This document shows, piece after piece, positions 36,677-43,091 of a DNA stretch of 55,483 nt; position 1 is the first letter of the stretch; every line of letters starts with the position of its first letter. The translations under genes and the position numbers were made by a program. The stretch is taken from NCBI RefSeq assembly GCF_003697345.1, contig NZ_RFLY01000020.1, positions 1-55,483 of the forward strand, given 5' to 3'. The stretch comes from Solilutibacter pythonis. GTDB lineage: Bacteria > Pseudomonadota > Gammaproteobacteria > Xanthomonadales > Xanthomonadaceae. The notes under the pieces are model-generated. The model was not told the DNA's origin. It ran no database searches and worked only from the letters and a program-made list of their open reading frames with translations.

Positions 36677-36790
36677 GCGCCCGCCGCCGCGCGAGGGCAA
36701 GCCCCGAGCGCCGGCGCCGCTACCCGGCCCCGCCCGGCGAACAACCAGCCACGGGGCAGGATCGAATCGCCGCTACCGGCAGTGCGGCTC

Positions 36791-36831
36791 GTCATCCGGC
36801 ACATGCCGTCATCCGTCTGGCCGGTCATCCG
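36791..36831. repeat. Three spaced GTCATCCG repeats
   Basis: GTCATCCG starts at 36791, 36808 and 36824, giving units of 17 and 16 bases. The rest of each unit is only loosely similar. It is a small degenerate tandem repeat of unknown meaning between parE and the polysaccharide cassette. Confidence 0.4.
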
Positions 36832-36960
36832 GTGCACACCGAAGCGGGCGAATCCACCTTCAATCCGACATGCCCGCCAGGCGCCCTAGCCCGGCACTCG
36901 GCCGTACCCATCGATGACTGCCGCATCCGGCATTCACACCGCATTGAGATCGCTTGAATT

Positions 36961-36977
36961 CCTGGTGTATCACCAGG
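36961..36977. promoter_or_regulatory. Perfect palindrome, possible operator upstream of the cassette
   Basis: CCTGGTG TAT CACCAGG is a perfect 7-base inverted repeat around a 3-base centre, in the AT-richer leader about 210-220 bases upstream of the deacetylase start. It lacks a T tract, so it is not an intrinsic terminator. Its symmetry suits a dimeric repressor or activator site. The bound regulator is unknown. Confidence 0.45.
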
Positions 36978-36997
36978 CCGCCCAATTCTTAGTCCAC

Positions 36998-37048
36998 ATG
37001 AAAAATGGATTCACCCTTGCGGAATTACTGCGAATATACGCACCGTAG
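36998..37048 (+). pseudogene. Truncated type IV prepilin N terminus
   Basis: ATG at 36998 begins MKNGFTLAELLRIYAP and stops at TAG 37046. The first 11 residues are a textbook class III prepilin leader: short basic n-region, Gly, then FTLxELL with Glu5. The hydrophobic helix that should follow is missing. It may be the remnant of a pilin gene, or chance. It overlaps nothing else that is coding. Confidence 0.35.
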
Positions 37049-37184
37049 CTATGTGCGCCCTTCCACAGATCGAAACACTCCAGCGCTTCGAGGCTCGATA
37101 TGTGAACTGGTTCCTATGGCCTGTACTGGTTATGAACTACCTTTCCCCAAAATTTCAAGCATGCGCCACGCATGGCTCCCCACG

Positions 37185-37814
37185 ATGACACGCAAAATCC
37201 AGAAAGCCTTGTTCATCGGCGCGCATCCCGATGATATAGAACTCGGCTGTGGCGGCACCATCGCGAAATTCATCGAGCGCGACATCGAGCCTTATTGCCT
37301 CGTCGCGACTCGCGGTGGCACGGCCGCCTTCGGCCACGACCGCGTGCAAGAAACCGCCACGGCTCTCAATACGTTGGGTGTGCCGATGGAAAATATCGTT
37401 CAGCACGATTTTCCCGATGCGCGGCTGGACAGCGTTCCGCTGTTCGAACTCATACGCTGCATCGAAAACACGGTCGCCTCCATCAAGCCCGATCGCGTCT
37501 ATACGATGTTCCGCGAAGACCGGCACCAGGATCACCGCGCCGTTTTCCACGCCTCCGACGTGGCCTGCCGCAAGGTGCCCCAGATCCTCGTTTACGAAAC
37601 GCCATCGGCCTATCCCAATTTCGTGCCGACCTTCTTCGAGGCGCTCAGCCCCGCGCAGATACAGCTCAAAAAAACCGCTCTGGCCGCACACGTCAGCCAG
37701 GGTGAACGCATCTACATGGATCACGAAGCCATCACGGCCGCATGCAAGTTCCGCGCGACGCAGGTCGGCCTGAATCAATGCGAGGGCTTCATCGCACACA
37801 AATTCATTTTCTAA
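37185..37814 (+). CDS. PIG-L family sugar de-N-acetylase (YaiS-like)
   Basis: The 209-residue cytoplasmic protein has the PIG-L/LmbE zinc site: AHPDD at residues 13-17 (His14, Asp17) and His117 in HQDHRAVFHA. Members deacetylate N-acetylglucosamine-containing lipids or sugars. I start at ATG 37185 (MTRKIQKALFIGAHPDD); in-frame ATGs at 37161 and 37116 are possible and no good ribosome site decides. It is followed after 22 bases by a processive GT2, then a hexapeptide protein and a YaiO-like barrel, which parallels E. coli yaiS-yaiP-yaiX-yaiO. The inferred role is trimming acetyl groups from the sugar or intermediate handled by that glycosyltransferase. Confidence 0.85.
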   Translation: MTRKIQKALFIGAHPDDIELGCGGTIAKFIERDIEPYCLVATRGGTAAFGHDRVQETATALNTLGVPMENIVQHDFPDARLDSVPLFELIRCIENTVASIKPDRVYTMFREDRHQDHRAVFHASDVACRKVPQILVYETPSAYPNFVPTFFEALSPAQIQLKKTALAAHVSQGERIYMDHEAITAACKFRATQVGLNQCEGFIAHKFIF

Positions 37815-37836
37815 AACGGCAACACCGCCCATACAC

Positions 37837-38979
37837 ATGAAAACAATCGCTTTCTTCATGATGGCCGCCATCGCCCTGGGCTATCTGCTGCTGGTCACGC
37901 TGCGGCGCAAGGCATCGGCCAACTTCCGCTCGGTGGACGCCATCATCCCGTGTTTCAACGAGGAGGCATGCATCGCCGATTCGCTGACCTACCTCATGCG
38001 CAACCCGTACTTCAACCGGGTGATCTGCGTGAACGACGGTTCCACCGACGGCACGGCCGCCGAGCTCGCCCGTCTCCAGCAGGAATACGGCGAGCGCCTG
38101 GTCGTTGTCAGCCAAACCAATACCGGCAAGGGCGGGGCGCTGATGAAAGGTCTCCAATACGTCACGACCGACCAGGTCTTCCTGACCGACGCCGACACCT
38201 ATGTGCCACCGGACAAATCCATCGGCTTCCTGCTGGCCGAGATCGAGGCGGGCGCGGACGCGGCCGGCGGAATTCCATCTTCCAACCTGAGAAACGGCGC
38301 CGGCCTGTTGCCGCATATCCGCGCGTCGGTCAAGCTGCCGATGATCATCATCAAGCGCACCTTCCAACAGATGCTGGGCGGCGCGCCGTTCATCATCAGC
38401 GGCGCCTGCGGGATGTTCAAGACCGAAGTCCTCCGCAAATATCCGTTCTCCGACCGCACCAAGGTCGAAGACCTCGATCTGACCTGGCAACTGGTCGCGG
38501 CCGGCCACAAGGTCCGGCAAGCCAACCGCTGCATCGTTTACCCGCAGGAGTGCAATACCGTTACCGAAGAGTGGAAGCGCTGGCGCCGCTGGATCGTCGG
38601 TTATGCCGTCTGCATGCGCCTGTATCCGCGCCTGCTCATCACCCGATTCGGCCTGTTTTCCATCCTGCCCATGCTCGGCCTCGTCATGCTGGGCGTCGCC
38701 GTCTACGCCATCAACTGGGCCGACTCATTCTCGAACGAAGGCCCCATCGGGATTTTCCATTCGCTATTTCCACTCACCTGGGTTCTCGTCGTGATGGCCA
38801 TCGGGATGTTTTGTGCCGTATTCCATCAACGGAAACGGCTGGTGTTCCTCGCACCGCTGGCTATCTGTTACGTGCTACTGGCGTACGCGATCTGGATCAG
38901 CCACGGCATCAAGGGCCTTTTCACGGGACGCGAGCCCGCCCGCGACAAACCGACGAGGTATCCCCATGTGGAGCGTTGA
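37837..38979 (+). CDS. Processive family 2 glycosyltransferase (YaiP-like)
   Basis: The 380-residue membrane protein has an N-terminal helix (2-20), a GT-A catalytic domain and three C-terminal helices (about 275-293, 310-330, 335-355). Processive GT2 motifs are complete: NDGSTDG 66-72, TDAD 117-120, VEDLD around 210-214, and RWRRW at 248-252. This layout is that of PgaC, hyaluronan and cellulose synthases, so it probably polymerises and extrudes a beta-linked polysaccharide. The donor sugar is unknown; an N-acetylhexosamine would fit the adjacent deacetylase. The stop overlaps the next gene by 14 bases. E. coli YaiP is the closest described relative by context. Confidence 0.88.
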   Translation: MKTIAFFMMAAIALGYLLLVTLRRKASANFRSVDAIIPCFNEEACIADSLTYLMRNPYFNRVICVNDGSTDGTAAELARLQQEYGERLVVVSQTNTGKGGALMKGLQYVTTDQVFLTDADTYVPPDKSIGFLLAEIEAGADAAGGIPSSNLRNGAGLLPHIRASVKLPMIIIKRTFQQMLGGAPFIISGACGMFKTEVLRKYPFSDRTKVEDLDLTWQLVAAGHKVRQANRCIVYPQECNTVTEEWKRWRRWIVGYAVCMRLYPRLLITRFGLFSILPMLGLVMLGVAVYAINWADSFSNEGPIGIFHSLFPLTWVLVVMAIGMFCAVFHQRKRLVFLAPLAICYVLLAYAIWISHGIKGLFTGREPARDKPTRYPHVER

Positions 38980-39586
38980 ATTAAAAACGCGCACCGGCGA
39001 AGTTTCCACGCACCTGGGAGATGGCCCGAACCGGATCCACGCAGAGGTACATCCAACCGCCACCCTGGACGCGAGCCAGGGGCCGATCGCCATCGGACAT
39101 GGAACGAAAGTCTGCGAAAACGCCGTCATCCGCGGCCCGGTGATCATCGGTGAGGGCTGCATCATCGGCACCAATACGGTCATCCGTGGCGCGACCTTCA
39201 TCGGTGACAAGGTACTCATCGGTAATGGCGCGGAAGTCAAGAACGCCATCATCGAGGACGAGGCGAGCCTCGGCCCCTATTCCTACGTCGCCGATTCCAT
39301 CATCAGGGAAGCCGTCTTTCTCGGCGCCCTGGTCCGCACCTCCAACTACCGACTCGACGACCGGAACATCGAAGTGATGAATGCCCTGGGCGAACGCGTC
39401 GATTCCGGGACCATGAAGCTTGGCGCTTGCATCGGCAAGCGCGCGAAGCTCGGTGTCGGCTGCATCGTCTTTCCCGGGCGGACGATCGCTGCCGATTCGC
39501 AGTTCGGGCCGGGAATCAACATCACCAAAAACCTGCCAACGGCGCGCTACAGCCTGCGGCAGGAACTCTCCACCTCCAACCTGTAG
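38966..39586 (+). CDS. Left-handed beta-helix (hexapeptide) protein, YaiX-like
   Basis: The 206-residue protein is built of hexapeptide repeats: VCENAVIRGPVIIGEGCIIG, TNTVIRGATFIGDKVLIGNG and further turns to residue 180, resembling the C-terminal part of GlmU-type nucleotidyltransferases. Family members are acyltransferases or sugar-nucleotide enzymes. No N-terminal nucleotidyltransferase domain is present, so an O- or N-acyltransferase or a scaffold is more likely. The start ATG 38966 is preceded by GAGG and lies inside the end of the GT2 gene, indicating coupling. In E. coli K-12 the corresponding yaiX is a pseudogene. Confidence 0.78.
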   Translation: MWSVELKTRTGEVSTHLGDGPNRIHAEVHPTATLDASQGPIAIGHGTKVCENAVIRGPVIIGEGCIIGTNTVIRGATFIGDKVLIGNGAEVKNAIIEDEASLGPYSYVADSIIREAVFLGALVRTSNYRLDDRNIEVMNALGERVDSGTMKLGACIGKRAKLGVGCIVFPGRTIAADSQFGPGINITKNLPTARYSLRQELSTSNL

Positions 39587-39617
39587 CCCCATCAATAGAC
39601 TGAACGAAGGAAGCACG

Positions 39618-40409
39618 ATGACCAAACGAACTCCCGCCCTGGCGCTTTCCGCTACGATTCTGGCGCTCGCGACCACCCACAGCATCGCTGCGGAACAGAC
39701 TTTCTCCCTCAATGTCGAATACACCGACCTAGAGGCGCTGGGCGAACGTTCCGTCCTGTCCGCCGACTATGTCCTGAAGAAGGAAAAGAACACCTTCGTT
39801 TTCAACATTGCCGGGGGGGATCGCAGTTTCCCGCAAGGCACCGACGCCAAGGCCAGCAAGGCCGGCATCACGGTCTACACCAAGTGGAATGACGTCGTCA
39901 CGACCCGCTTCGGCGGCTCCGTCGCCTCGGACAAGCCGGTGTTCGCCAAGCGCGACCTGTACGGCAACGTCGATCTCAACTTCATCCCGAACACTTCGCT
40001 CAGCTTCGGCGCCCGCGATACCCGATACTTCGGCAATGTCGGCGTGACCTCGTGGAATGCCGGCGCCACCTACTACTTCCCTCGCGGCTCGCTGATGTAT
40101 CGCTTCACCCGTTACAAGACGGACATCACCGGCTCCAAGAACGGGCACACCGCCCGCCTGACCATCAAGGATGGGGCTTCCAGCAAGGGCAGGACCGAGT
40201 TGTGGCTGGGCAAGGGCAATCGCGCGTTCGCGTACGACTGGGCAACGGAATTCCTGGCCGGGTCGACGAAATCGGCCACCTTGCGCCGCGTGCAACCGGT
40301 CAGCGAGAACTTGGCGCTGAACGCGACGCTTGGCCGCACCTGGTACAAGATGCCGTTCACCCAATACACCGGAACCACGCTGGGTCTCGGCATCGAATAC
40401 AACTGGTGA
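39618..40409 (+). CDS. YaiO-family outer-membrane beta-barrel protein
   Basis: The 263-residue protein has a signal peptide (cleavage near SIAA-EQ) and then alternating amphipathic strands rich in aromatic residues, ending with LGLGIEYNW, a terminal aromatic typical of outer-membrane barrels. E. coli YaiO is a 257-residue outer-membrane protein of the same kind. ATG 39618 has AAGGAAG upstream. As last gene of the cassette it probably exports, anchors or senses the product made by the GT2 enzyme. It is shorter than PgaA and has no TPR domain. Confidence 0.8.
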   Translation: MTKRTPALALSATILALATTHSIAAEQTFSLNVEYTDLEALGERSVLSADYVLKKEKNTFVFNIAGGDRSFPQGTDAKASKAGITVYTKWNDVVTTRFGGSVASDKPVFAKRDLYGNVDLNFIPNTSLSFGARDTRYFGNVGVTSWNAGATYYFPRGSLMYRFTRYKTDITGSKNGHTARLTIKDGASSKGRTELWLGKGNRAFAYDWATEFLAGSTKSATLRRVQPVSENLALNATLGRTWYKMPFTQYTGTTLGLGIEYNW

Positions 40410-40428
40410 ACCCCACCGGGAAATCGCA

Positions 40429-40460
40429 CGGGAGGCTGATCGAAGCCTCCCGTCTTTTTA
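40429..40460 (+). terminator. Intrinsic terminator of the yai-like cassette
   Basis: A 9-base stem CGGGAGGCT / AGCCTCCCG with loop GATCGA (40438-40443) is followed by TCTTTTTA. It lies 20 bases after the stop of the YaiO-like gene, so the four-gene cassette has a defined 3' end and eptA is a separate transcription unit. Confidence 0.9.
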
Positions 40461-40823
40461 CCACCCGTGTCGGCTTGAATGCCAATATTTCCGTGGGCGA
40501 TCCGCCCGCCACCGCCGCGATGCCGCAGGCATGCCGCATCCGCTTCCTGCGTAGCCTTCTTATGCGGCGGCGCTGACCGCTGGCGGCTGAGCAATCGCGC
40601 GCGCTCGACACCGGTATCCGATCGACCTCCATGAGGGGGAAATGCGATCAACCCGGCCTCGCGCGAGCGGATGCCCGACATCCAGGCGAGCGCCTCCAAC
40701 GGACCCGGTTCCCAATACGGTTCACGATCGGCCCGGCCATCCGGCGATCTTCGCCATGCTGCCGTGCAACAATAACGCCCCGCTCGTGGTCGCACCCGGC
40801 GCCCTTACCGACTCCCTCAAGGC
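40461..40823. other. Intergenic stretch before eptA
   Basis: These 363 bases hold no recognisable gene. The plus-strand frames that cross it are extensions into the eptA region in other frames. It presumably contains the eptA promoter and 5' leader, but I see no clear -35/-10 pair. Confidence 0.5.
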
Positions 40824-42431
40824 ATGCGCCGAACCCTATCCACCGTTTTCCGCAAGTTCGACCTGAACCTTGGTTATGCGGCCTTTCTCGCCGCATTCAC
40901 ATTGTTCAACCTGCTGGTCTTCCAGTGGCCGCTGTACCGCTACGCCATCGCCAACAGCGAGCCCGGATCGCTTCCCGGCCTTCTGAACCTGCTGACGCTG
41001 AGCGGCCTCCAGGTCGCGCTGATGGCGGTCTTCCTGACCCTGCTCTCCCTGCTTTCGATCCGGCTCACCAAGACCGCCTGCATCCTGATCCTGCTTGGAA
41101 ACGCTCTCGCGCTGTATTTCATGACCACCTACGGCGTGCTCATCGACAAGGCGATGATGGGCAACGTGTTCAACACCGACCGCCGCGAGGCCGGGGAGCT
41201 TTTCAGCCCCGGGATCATCGGTTATCTGCTGGCGCTGGGCGTATTGCCCGCGCTCGTGGTGGCCAAGGCCGCCATCCGCGGCTCCACCCGCCTCAAACGG
41301 TTGGGGCTGCTGCTTGCGAGCGCGGTACTCGGTTGCGCGATGATCTATGCCAGCTCGTCCACCTGGCTGTGGTTCGACAAGCACGCCAAGCACCTCGGCG
41401 GGTTGATGCTGCCCTGGTCCTACATCGCCAATACGATCCGCCATTTCCAGGATTCGGCCTCCGCCAACCGGCCCCAGGCGCCATTGCCGCCCCTGCATTT
41501 CGAAGAAGCGCCACAGCCCGGGCGCAAGACCATCGTCGTGCTGGTGATCGGCGAATCCGCACGCGCGAAAAACTTCTCGCTTTACGGCTATGCCAAAGAC
41601 ACCAACCCGCAGTTGGCCAAGGCCGGCGTCGTGGCGCTCGGCAATACGGTTTCATGCAGCACCTACACCACCGCATCGCTGCGCTGCATGCTGTCGCATC
41701 TCGGCAGCAAGGCGCCGGCGCGCGTCACCCAGGAAATCCTGCCCAACTACCTGCAACGCCACGGCGTGGAGGTGATCTGGCGCAGCAACAACTGGGGCGA
41801 GCCGCCACTCAAGGTCGGTCTCTATCAACGCGCCGAGGACATACGCAAGACCTGCACCGGCACCGACTGCGCACGCCTGCGCTACGACGAAGCGCTGCTG
41901 TATGGGCTGAAGGAAAAACTCCAGGCATCGGACGCCTCGCGCATCTTCGTGGTATTGCACCAGGCCGGCAGCCATGGCCCGCAATATGCCGGGAAGTACC
42001 CGCGGGAATTCGAGCGTTTCACACCCGTATGCCGTTCGGTAAACGTAAGCAAGTGCCCGCCGGACACGCTCGTCAATGCCTACGACAACACCATCCTCTA
42101 CACCGACCATTTCCTGGCCGAGACGATCCAACTGCTGCGAGCGGTCCCCGATAGCGTTTCGACCATGATCTACATGTCCGATCACGGCGAATCCCTGGGG
42201 GAGCGCGGCTTCTACCTGCACGGAACACCGAACACGCTAGCCCCCGATGAGCAACGCGCGATCCCCTTCCTGGTCTGGACATCTCCGGGCTTCAGCAAGA
42301 CCCAAGCCTCGGCTGTCACAAAAGCGAAAAACTCTGGCCGTACTCAGGACGATATCTTTCACAGCGTGCTCGGCGCCTTCGATGCCCGCAGCGACATCTA
42401 CAACCCCACATTCGACATATTCGCCCCCTGA
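40824..42431 (+). CDS. eptA: Phosphoethanolamine-lipid A transferase (EptA type)
   Basis: The 535-residue inner-membrane enzyme moves phosphoethanolamine from phosphatidylethanolamine to lipid A phosphates on the periplasmic side. Five membrane helices (about 18-36, 58-78, 84-106, 128-150, 158-178) precede a sulfatase-fold domain. Visible catalytic residues: Glu244 in IGESARAKNFSLYGY, nucleophile Thr282 (four residues after Cys278 in SCSTYTTASLRC), and the metal site YMSDHGESLGE. The three cysteine pairs of the family are recognisable (278/288, the CTGTDC pair and CRSVNVSKC). Such enzymes give cationic-peptide tolerance. AAGG lies next to the ATG. It is followed by the PAP2 gene after 12 bases. 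Confidence 0.94.
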   Translation: MRRTLSTVFRKFDLNLGYAAFLAAFTLFNLLVFQWPLYRYAIANSEPGSLPGLLNLLTLSGLQVALMAVFLTLLSLLSIRLTKTACILILLGNALALYFMTTYGVLIDKAMMGNVFNTDRREAGELFSPGIIGYLLALGVLPALVVAKAAIRGSTRLKRLGLLLASAVLGCAMIYASSSTWLWFDKHAKHLGGLMLPWSYIANTIRHFQDSASANRPQAPLPPLHFEEAPQPGRKTIVVLVIGESARAKNFSLYGYAKDTNPQLAKAGVVALGNTVSCSTYTTASLRCMLSHLGSKAPARVTQEILPNYLQRHGVEVIWRSNNWGEPPLKVGLYQRAEDIRKTCTGTDCARLRYDEALLYGLKEKLQASDASRIFVVLHQAGSHGPQYAGKYPREFERFTPVCRSVNVSKCPPDTLVNAYDNTILYTDHFLAETIQLLRAVPDSVSTMIYMSDHGESLGERGFYLHGTPNTLAPDEQRAIPFLVWTSPGFSKTQASAVTKAKNSGRTQDDIFHSVLGAFDARSDIYNPTFDIFAP

Positions 42432-42443
42432 CCCCGCCCCCAC

Positions 42444-43076
42444 ATGACCCCCGCCTCCGACAAAAACCTCCCGCCAAACGACGACTTCCTGCCCACGAAA
42501 CGTTCATCCAGCATACGGATGCTATGGCTGCTCAGCATCCTTGCACTCCTGACAAGCACGCTATATCCCAGCGACCTGGCCTGTTACGAGCTTCAAAAGG
42601 GCAGCTCCATCGCCCCCCAGGCCGCTTACGTCACCGAAAACTACGGGCGCTTCATCAACACCGCGTTGCAAATCGGCCTGCCCCTGGCCTATCGCGATGT
42701 GGCAGGCATCGTCCAACTCGCCAAGGTGGCCATCGCCACCACGCTCGCCACCCACGGCGCCAAGCGCCTTTTGAACGGCCTGACGATCCGCGACACCCGG
42801 CTGGGCCAGCGACCCAGCTCCCCCAACAGCCGGCACAACATGCCCTCGGGCCATTCGTCGATGGCCTCCAGCGGCTTCTACTTCGTCTGCCGCCGCTATG
42901 GCTGGATGCTGGCGATACTGACGCTCCCCATCATGCTGCTCACCATGCACGCGCGGGTGGCATTGGACATGCACACCATTTCCGCGGTGATTTCCGGCGC
43001 CCTGCTCGGCATCATGGTCACTGCGATCTTCACCACCAAGCGCGAAACCGACACCAAGAACGACGCGGCGGTATGA
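42444..43076 (+). CDS. PAP2 lipid phosphatase, probably a lipid A phosphatase
   Basis: The 210-residue membrane protein has the PAP2 motifs KRLLNGLTIRDTRLGQRP (KxnRP, ending at residue 124), PSGH (134-137) and RVALDMH (Arg171, His177). The Asp usually four residues after that His is not seen (Ala181), as in some lipid-modifying members. Its position 12 bases after eptA suggests it acts on the same substrate, removing a phosphate (LpxE-like) or transferring one (LpxT-like). LpxE followed by EptA is a known sequential pathway in Helicobacter. The exact position on lipid A cannot be told. Confidence 0.8.
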   Translation: MTPASDKNLPPNDDFLPTKRSSSIRMLWLLSILALLTSTLYPSDLACYELQKGSSIAPQAAYVTENYGRFINTALQIGLPLAYRDVAGIVQLAKVAIATTLATHGAKRLLNGLTIRDTRLGQRPSSPNSRHNMPSGHSSMASSGFYFVCRRYGWMLAILTLPIMLLTMHARVALDMHTISAVISGALLGIMVTAIFTTKRETDTKNDAAV

Positions 43077-43091
43077 ACCCTACCCTTGCCG

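What the first reader, a model, noticed from the sequence alone, without database searches (positions are those of the whole stretch)
37185..40460. Complete four-gene yaiS-yaiP-yaiX-yaiO-like polysaccharide cassette
PIG-L deacetylase, processive GT2, hexapeptide protein and YaiO-like outer-membrane barrel are packed in order and closed by a strong terminator. E. coli K-12 has the same four functions as yaiO-yaiX-yaiP-yaiS, of unknown role and with yaiX disrupted. Functionally it parallels pgaABCD, but with a cytoplasmic PIG-L enzyme in place of periplasmic PgaB and a small barrel in place of PgaA. This may be a minimal, undescribed exopolysaccharide or glycolipid system with all parts intact.
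Basis: partly seen in the sequence, partly recalled or inferred. Interest (0 to 1): 0.85.

Follow-up and report, generated by a model that had tools for sequence, protein, structure and literature searches.

The report
Horizontally acquired yaiSPXO-type surface-glycan cassette
Four adjacent genes form a rare, mobile and still uncharacterised gene set, also found in E. coli, that most likely makes an amino-sugar chain and passes it out through its own pore in the outer membrane.

Summary
PIG-L deacetylase (37185-37814), GT2 (37837-38979), hexapeptide protein (38966-39586) and YaiO barrel (39618-40409) lie in order before a hairpin terminator, each above its Pfam cut-off, in the gene order of K-12 yaiS-yaiP-yaiX-yaiO (GT2 66% identical).

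Completeness is not special: 4,780 of 5,426 E. coli genomes have a place covering at least 80% of the cassette, interrupted copies included, and 45 plasmid records carry the GT2. Elsewhere it is rare: 1 of 17 genomes of the window's genus, in a 6.4-kb insert with eptA and lpxE.

New here: two Clostridia carry the three enzymes with no YaiO beside them; in one, the next gene is a CE4 polysaccharide deacetylase. YaiO-domain genes lie within 2 kb of a PgaC-like GT2 in 21 of 23 genomes (about 0.06 expected). YaiO is predicted as a 14-stranded OmpG-like pore.

Best reading: a synthase-dependent amino-sugar glycan system, separate from the pga genes this host also has. Substrate, product and the roles of PIG-L and the hexapeptide protein are inferred.

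The parts
37185..37814 (+). PIG-L (LmbE-like, CE14-type) deacetylase, YaiS-like, 209 aa, no signal peptide seen; alternative start 37161
   Evidence: PF02585 85.5 bits; metal ligands H14, D17, H117 and base D16 conserved in 8 of 8 aligned homologues, two Clostridia included; nearest solved structures are archaeal diacetylchitobiose deacetylases over nearly the whole length
37837..38979 (+). membrane GT2 glycosyltransferase, YaiP-like, 380 aa; PgaC-related
   Evidence: PF00535/PF13641/PF13632; PgaC_IcaA 108 bits, below cut-off; D67, D118xD120, E211-D212 and R248xxR251-W252 conserved in 9 of 9; low-to-medium confidence model, mean pLDDT 69.7, resembles Chlorella virus hyaluronan synthase, TM 0.66 by query length
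38966..39586 (+). left-handed beta-helix (hexapeptide) protein, YaiX-like, 206 aa; 14-nt overlap with the GT2
   Evidence: PF00132; Arch_glmU 138.5 bits, below cut-off; best solved relatives 5z09/2ggo, acetyltransferase end of an archaeal GlmU-like enzyme; the position of its catalytic His is Pro104 in 8 of 8
39618..40409 (+). YaiO-family outer-membrane beta-barrel, 263 aa with N-terminal hydrophobic helix
   Evidence: PF19413 and TIGR04390 above cut-off; AlphaFold2 model mean pLDDT 83, 14 strands
40428..40453 (+). intrinsic-terminator-like hairpin followed by CTTTTT
40824..42431 (+). phosphoethanolamine-lipid A transferase (EptA), neighbour in the same insert, not part of the cassette
   Evidence: NF007160 614 bits over cut-off 561
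42444..43076 (+). lipid A 1-phosphatase (LpxE), neighbour in the same insert, not part of the cassette
   Evidence: NF007159 191 bits over cut-off 177
36677..43091 (.). 6.4-kb species-specific insert between parE and an N-formylglutamate amidohydrolase gene (yaiSPXO-eptA-lpxE)
   Evidence: the interval was read in 13 of 16 congeners; none has the cassette, eptA or lpxE there; 52 bp in G938

Best explanation
The cassette encodes a small synthase-dependent system for an amino-sugar glycan at the cell surface. SHOWN: one conserved set of four genes, horizontally mobile, in which a PgaC-related membrane GT2 is the most conserved part (64-66% between the window and enterics, against 39-44% for PIG-L and hexapeptide protein and 31-33% for YaiO). 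INFERRED: the GT2 uses UDP-GlcNAc or a similar UDP-amino sugar and extends a chain through the inner membrane. PIG-L removes an N-acetyl group from a sugar still reachable in the cytoplasm: a lipid-linked or nascent GlcNAc end, since its nearest characterised relatives act on the non-reducing GlcNAc of chitobiose. The hexapeptide protein, made in step with the GT2 through overlapping genes, then binds or acylates that amine, or holds the enzymes together. YaiO, a 14-stranded unplugged barrel, lets the product through or holds it at the outer membrane. In Clostridia, where the core has no YaiO beside it, an extracytoplasmic CE4 deacetylase follows it in one of two cases, which fits an exported GlcNAc-type chain. 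In this host the cassette arrived with eptA and lpxE as a surface-remodelling insert, beside its own pga genes.
Against: No substrate or product is shown by any search. The GT2 fails the PgaC/IcaA cut-off by a wide margin and the cassette has no PgaD-like ORF. The GT2 model has low confidence in its membrane part; by E-value its best match is a lipid-type mannosyltransferase (6yv7), and GtrB and ArnC also score. The hexapeptide protein lacks the catalytic histidine of its closest solved relatives and has no invariant histidine at all, so an acyl transfer is unproven. The host has its own PgaA-, PgaB- and PgaC-like genes, so a second PNAG-type polymer would look redundant. The first Clostridium (L035) has no CE4 gene next to the trio, and its record is titled UNVERIFIED_CONTAM. 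Most family YaiO genes sit beside GT2s of another type, with no close relative of the window's GT2, PIG-L or hexapeptide protein within about 1.5 kb, so the linkage supports YaiO with GT2, not the whole cassette.
Confidence: 0.55

Rival explanations
1. Glycolipid or lipid A / O-chain decoration: the GT2 is a polyprenyl-phosphate or lipid glycosyltransferase (GtrB/ArnC/PcManGT type), PIG-L deacetylates the lipid-linked GlcNAc as in GPI-anchor synthesis, the hexapeptide protein acylates it, and YaiO binds or presents the lipid.
For: The GT2 model's best Foldseek hit by E-value is PcManGT 6yv7, and GtrB and ArnC are in the list. PIG-L enzymes classically act on GlcNAc-lipids and small conjugates (PMC4101496, passages). 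The co-acquired neighbours eptA and lpxE act on lipid A. FadL-type lipid channels are among YaiO's structural matches.
Against: TM-score by query length is higher for hyaluronan synthases (0.61-0.66 in the better rows) than for PcManGT (0.51) or GtrB/ArnC (0.33-0.41). The best sequence model is PgaC_IcaA in the window and in the three other yai GT2s tested. The CE4 gene in a Clostridium points to an extracellular polymer. The model is weak, so this rival stays alive.
Confidence: 0.25
2. An accessory PNAG module: the cassette makes or modifies ordinary poly-GlcNAc alongside the host's pga system, with YaiO as an extra or bypass export pore.
For: The GT2 is closest to PgaC. In G096 a YaiO-domain gene follows PgaA, PgaB and PgaC matches. 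The window's host and the E. coli control genome both have PgaC over the cut-off.
Against: PgaC cut-off far from met; catalytic (Q/R)xxRW has Arg, not Gln, in 9 of 9. The PIG-L and hexapeptide proteins have no counterpart in pgaABCD (from established knowledge). In G096 and G122 another GT2 lies on the other side of YaiO, so its partner there is uncertain.
Confidence: 0.15
3. Degenerate or selfish cargo: a mobile relic carried on plasmids and genomic inserts with little current function.
For: K-12 carries an IS2-broken yaiX and a yaiS that stops early; several plasmid copies are partial (GT2 covering 53% or 79% of the query, or lacking PIG-L).
Against: All tested catalytic columns of GT2 and PIG-L are conserved from Gammaproteobacteria to Clostridia; the gene order is kept; in the window no frame is broken.
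Confidence: 0.05

Closest known systems
Escherichia coli yaiS-yaiP-yaiX-yaiO (b0364, b0363, b4579, b0358)
   Same: Same four families, order and strand; GT2 66% identical over 376 aa.
   Different: K-12 yaiX is split by IS2A and its annotated YaiS is shorter (185 aa); here all four frames are open. PIG-L, hexapeptide and YaiO proteins are only 31-48% identical.
pgaABCD / icaADBC poly-beta-1,6-GlcNAc systems
   Same: PgaC-related membrane GT2; a deacetylase; an outer-membrane barrel.
   Different: Deacetylase is a cytoplasmic-type PIG-L instead of a CE4 enzyme; a hexapeptide protein is added; no PgaD; barrel without TPR domain, predicted with 14 strands. GT2 108 bits vs PgaC cut-off 422.
Nod-factor core NodC-NodB-NodA/NodL
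   Same: Logic of a GT2 chitooligosaccharide synthase, a deacetylase for the non-reducing end and an acyltransferase (NodL is of hexapeptide type; recalled).
   Different: GT2 scores 32.8 bits against a NodC cut-off of 550; deacetylase is from another fold family; no NodA; function untested.
HEAT-repeat / YaiO / GT2 loci with kinase and response regulator (e.g. G083, locus L066) and GT2 / TPR-YaiO loci (e.g. G029, L061)
   Same: YaiO-domain barrel coded next to a PgaC-like GT2.
   Different: No PIG-L or hexapeptide gene seen there; other partner genes; barrel not detectably similar to the window's YaiO by tblastn.
Archaeal GlmU-type sugar-1-phosphate acetyltransferase (PDB 5z09, 2ggo)
   Same: Hexapeptide protein aligns over 158 profile positions of its acetyltransferase end.
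   Different: No nucleotidyltransferase domain; catalytic His (His308 of ST0452, recalled) is Pro in 8 of 8.

Membership tests
yaiSPXO cassette | PIG-L, GT2, hexapeptide and YaiO genes in this order on one strand | tested here: met
yaiSPXO cassette | GT2 belongs to the YaiP group, set apart from other GT2s | tested here: met
   66% to YaiP; in plasmids the number of records is 45 at E 1e-60 and still 45 at 1e-25, all 60-80% identical
PgaC/IcaA PNAG synthase (TIGR03937) | curated score cut-off 422.3 bits | tested here: not met
   108 bits for the window; 100-111 bits for three relatives
PgaC/IcaA PNAG synthase (TIGR03937) | processive-GT2 residues D, DxD, ED, QxxRW | tested here: inconclusive
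   all present except Gln of QxxRW, which is Arg248 in 9 of 9
pgaABCD operon | CE4 deacetylase PgaB, TPR-barrel PgaA and PgaD in the same operon | tested here: not met
   ORFs of the cassette: none fits; separate PgaA- (353.8 bits, just under the 366.65 cut-off), CE4- and PgaC-like matches lie on another contig, C4
LmbE-like / PIG-L deacetylases (PF02585) | profile cut-off and His-Asp-His metal site with Asp base | tested here: met
   85.5 bits vs 28.2; H14, D16, D17, H117 conserved in 8 of 8; motif from PMC4101496 Table 1
YaiO family (PF19413, TIGR04390) | profile cut-offs | tested here: met
   79.0 vs 23.9 and 76.8 vs 32 bits
YaiO family (PF19413, TIGR04390) | location in the outer membrane | not testable with these tools
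   barrel prediction only; E. coli YaiO is said to be in the outer membrane in PMC4453288 (passage)
GlmU-type amino-sugar acetyltransferase | left-handed beta-helix fold of that branch | tested here: met
   E 1.7e-33 to 5z09
GlmU-type amino-sugar acetyltransferase | catalytic histidine | tested here: not met
   Pro104 in 8 of 8 at that column; which residue is catalytic is recalled
Nod-factor synthesis (NodC) | NodC cut-off 550 bits | tested here: not met
   32.8 bits
Nod-factor synthesis (NodC) | deacetylation then acylation of the non-reducing end | not testable with these tools
   needs enzyme assays

The most novel reading that the evidence does not exclude
The cassette is a distinct class of synthase-dependent glycan secretion in which the growing, non-reducing end is edited in the cytoplasm: the GT2 makes a GlcNAc-type chain, PIG-L exposes one terminal amine (as diacetylchitobiose deacetylase and NodB do), the hexapeptide protein caps or captures it, and the product leaves by a YaiO pore in diderms or goes to a CE4 enzyme in monoderms. 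It would be a Nod-factor-like end-editing logic hidden in most E. coli strains and spread by conjugative plasmids.
Probability: 0.2. Interest if true: 0.85.

Novelty: new variant of a known kind. Interest (0 to 1): 0.57.

Why it matters
YaiO, YaiP, YaiS and YaiX are among the uncharacterised genes of the best-studied bacterium, and yaiO is used as an 'orphan' PCR marker for E. coli (PMC4453288, passages). The lab reference strain K-12 has a broken locus, which may be why no role was found. The window shows that yaiO is no orphan, gives a distant intact relative for residue-level comparison, and the Clostridial trio separates an enzyme core from an outer-membrane part. That turns 'unknown genes' into a testable glycan pathway that is on the chromosome of most E. 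coli and on plasmids. The reference survey of synthase-dependent exopolysaccharide operons (PMC7112194) holds neither the word YaiO nor PIG-L (search listing only).

Tried and rejected
Phage or prophage origin: no GT2 match in 50,697 phage records at E 1e-30 nor among 14 candidate stretches of viral contigs; the hexapeptide search there gave only two distant (28%) loci. tRNA, Rfam RNA or flanking-repeat signs of integration: none; the direct repeats found are weak pairs. Direct descent within the lineage: rejected, GT2 in 1 of 17 congeners, 1 of 369 in the class sample (E 1e-60) and 1 of 398 in the phylum sample (E 1e-50), the one being the window's own genome each time; the samples overlap. 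Recent gift from E. coli: not supported, the window's GT2 is about equally far (63-66%) from all enteric and Ignatzschineria copies tested. YaiO against the PDB by sequence: nothing meaningful. First attempt to place YaiO in the family by tblastn gave no partner within about 1.5 kb except in the own locus and one weak hit; profile searches changed that. In one search four of ten family proteins (L004, L008, L022, L025) were translated on the wrong strand and gave no family; they are left out of the fusion count. No paper on the function of the whole cassette was found in the ten paper searches (those that name yai genes); the library is open-access only. One 2026 paper reports that overproducing YaiX changes drug tolerance and virulence of E. 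coli in silkworms (PMC13058169; abstract and outline, section 3.5 and passages seen); it gives no enzymatic role in what I saw, and the word yaiP does not occur in it.
Full report
OBSERVATION. Each passes the gathering score of its Pfam family. The GT2 and the hexapeptide gene overlap by 14 nt; in the enteric copies the hexapeptide frame can start far inside the GT2 gene, and in the Acetivibrio locus it starts at the last base of the GT2's stop codon, so coupling of these two genes is a recurrent feature. A hairpin with a T run follows yaiO (-26.4 kcal/mol, z -3.95).

RELATION TO E. COLI. K-12 has the same order yaiS-yaiP-yaiX-yaiO, with IS2A inside yaiX. blastp gives 66% for the GT2, 42% for PIG-L, 48% for the hexapeptide protein against one yaiX fragment and 33% for YaiO. 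K-12's annotated YaiS (185 aa) is also short: the match to the window's PIG-L goes on in the same frame beyond its annotated stop. Intact-length copies exist in other strains, for example E69 (L032). Among 5,426 complete E. coli genomes 4,900 have a match to the E69 cassette and 4,780 a place covering at least 80% of it. That figure includes IS-interrupted copies; of 40 records listed at even steps down the ranking, 34 hold 97% or more in one piece. One aligned piece does not exclude small frame breaks.

MOBILITY. The GT2 occurs in 45 of 72,556 plasmid records (42 Escherichia, 2 Salmonella, 1 Enterobacter; 33 predicted conjugative; five of the records are longer than 1 Mb and may be chromosomes). 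All 45 also hold the hexapeptide and YaiO genes and 41 also PIG-L; of 52 records with a YaiO match, 45 have the GT2, five more the hexapeptide gene, and two only part of YaiO (the hexapeptide list printed 60 of 85 records). These records are not independent: many are near-identical. Three plasmid regions read in full show the same order. No phage record has the GT2.

DISTRIBUTION. A scan of 84,980 species genomes with two short peptide patterns returned nine loci: five with all four genes in order (Ignatzschineria, Citrobacter braakii, E. coli E69, E. whittamii, Superficieibacter), one with the three enzymes only (Acetivibrio alkalicellulosi, titled UNVERIFIED_CONTAM), and three weak GT2 hits without the other genes. 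The scan reaches only genomes that keep those peptides. In whole-genome samples the GT2 was found only in the window's own genome: 1 of 17 in the genus, 1 of 369 in the class, 1 of 398 in the phylum.

THE INSERT. In the congeners parE and an N-formylglutamate amidohydrolase gene (PF05013) flank the same place. I fetched this interval from 13 of 16 congeners, those with both genes on one contig; none holds the cassette, eptA or lpxE (tblastn, E 1e-3), several hold other genes, and in G938 the two flanking genes are 52 bp apart. In the window the interval is 6.4 kb and carries yaiSPXO, eptA and lpxE. G+C is 60.7% for the cassette, 61.9% and 62.2% for eptA and lpxE, 65.5% for the window. The insert is therefore a species-specific gain at a variable site. 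Its GT2 is about equally far from all enteric and Ignatzschineria copies tested (63-66%), so it is not a recent E. coli copy.

AN ENZYME CORE WITHOUT YAIO. A sample of 291 genomes from the class of the Acetivibrio genome gave one further genome with the GT2 (G1196), which lowers the worry about contamination. There PIG-L, GT2 and hexapeptide genes follow each other, 59-69% identical to those of Acetivibrio. The next gene, 20 nt on, codes for a PF01522 (CE4) polysaccharide deacetylase with an N-terminal hydrophobic stretch, and a GH16 gene stands upstream in the opposite direction. No YaiO match exists in the Acetivibrio genome nor in the 13-kb stretch of G1196; the rest of G1196 was not searched. 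The Acetivibrio trio has no CE4 neighbour in the stretch read. I read this as a three-enzyme core to which diderms add an outer-membrane barrel.

YAIO AND GT2. In the window's family 23 of 198 genomes have a YaiO-domain match. A search of these 23 genomes with the PgaC_IcaA model (E 1e-20) puts a match within 2 kb of YaiO in 21; 0.06 would be expected by random placement. In the two others, G143 and G151, no match lies on the YaiO contig. Most of these partners are weak PgaC relatives (77-127 bits; cut-off 422). Some YaiO genes are TPR-YaiO fusions (4 of the 6 read correctly); one locus reads kinase, response regulator, YaiO, HEAT protein, GT2 and another GT2, TPR-YaiO, sulfatase-type protein. 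In G096 YaiO follows PgaA-, CE4- and PgaC-like matches, with a second GT2 beyond it. The genomes are related, so the 21 are not independent events. The linkage supports YaiO as the outer-membrane partner of membrane GT2 synthases; it does not by itself support the four-gene cassette, since no close relative of the window's PIG-L or hexapeptide protein was seen beside the other YaiO genes (about 1.5 kb each side).

ACTIVE SITES. GT2: D67, D118xD120, E211-D212 and RxxRW are kept in 9 of 9 sequences. PIG-L: H14, D16, D17, H114, H117 and H169 in 8 of 8, matching the LmbE metal-site pattern (PMC4101496, passages). Its nearest solved relatives are archaeal diacetylchitobiose deacetylases, which act only on the non-reducing end (PMC9779004, abstract and passages). 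Hexapeptide: best solved relatives are 5z09 and 2ggo. I recall this enzyme as ST0452, with His308 catalytic and Asn331 important; in the printed alignment His308 falls on Pro104 (8 of 8) and Asn331 on Asn127 (8 of 8), and there is no invariant histidine. Its chemistry is open.

MECHANISM. Shown: a conserved, mobile set with a PgaC-related synthase, a plausibly active PIG-L enzyme and a pore-like barrel. Inferred: GlcNAc-type chain, cytoplasmic deacetylation near the non-reducing end, capture or acylation by the hexapeptide protein, exit by YaiO. The host's own PgaA-, PgaB- and PgaC-like genes on another contig argue that the product is not simply PNAG. Confidence in a synthase-dependent amino-sugar glycan is 0.55; in Nod-like end editing 0.2.

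LITERATURE. YaiO is known as an E. coli 'orphan' outer-membrane protein and PCR marker (PMC4453288, passages). YaiS appears in a list of thermotolerance genes (PMC5828445, passages), and yaiP in lists of a silver screen (PMC6071238, passages) and as the place of an antisense RNA (PMC4666370, passages). YaiX overproduction phenotypes were published in 2026 (PMC13058169). No paper describing the four genes as a pathway was found; the library is open-access only.

VERDICT. A real, complete, laterally acquired member of an uncharacterised E. coli gene set. Ordinary as to completeness; of interest for the rare host, the Clostridial core, the YaiO-GT2 linkage and the testable mechanism.

Noticed in passing
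L002 8060-8617 (K-12 yaiS): Besides yaiX, K-12 yaiS looks shortened: its annotated frame ends at 185 aa although the match to homologues goes on in the same frame. Longer copies exist in other strains.
   Followed up: partly
window 40824-43076: eptA and lpxE side by side, both over their NCBIfam cut-offs, best matches PRK09598 and PRK09597, in the same insert and absent from this site in 13 congeners: a lipid A 1-position remodelling pair (function from established knowledge).
   Followed up: partly
L063-L066 (G130, G174, G194, G083) and other family loci: A recurrent locus type near YaiO: kinase, response regulator, YaiO, HEAT-repeat protein and GT2 (L066; G130 similar by eye), apparently another undescribed YaiO-GT2 system.
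   Followed up: partly
L027 and L028 (E. coli plasmids): The plasmid cassette lies near colicin B and M genes, and L028 carries a partial second GT2 of the same kind about 4 kb upstream.
   Followed up: no
L057 7721-8644: A GH16 glycosidase gene (PF00722) stands divergent to the Clostridial PIG-L-GT2-hexapeptide-CE4 set.
   Followed up: no
window 36677-43091: The interval between parE and the amidohydrolase gene is a variable site in the genus: 52 bp in G938, other genes in the other fetched congeners.
   Followed up: yes
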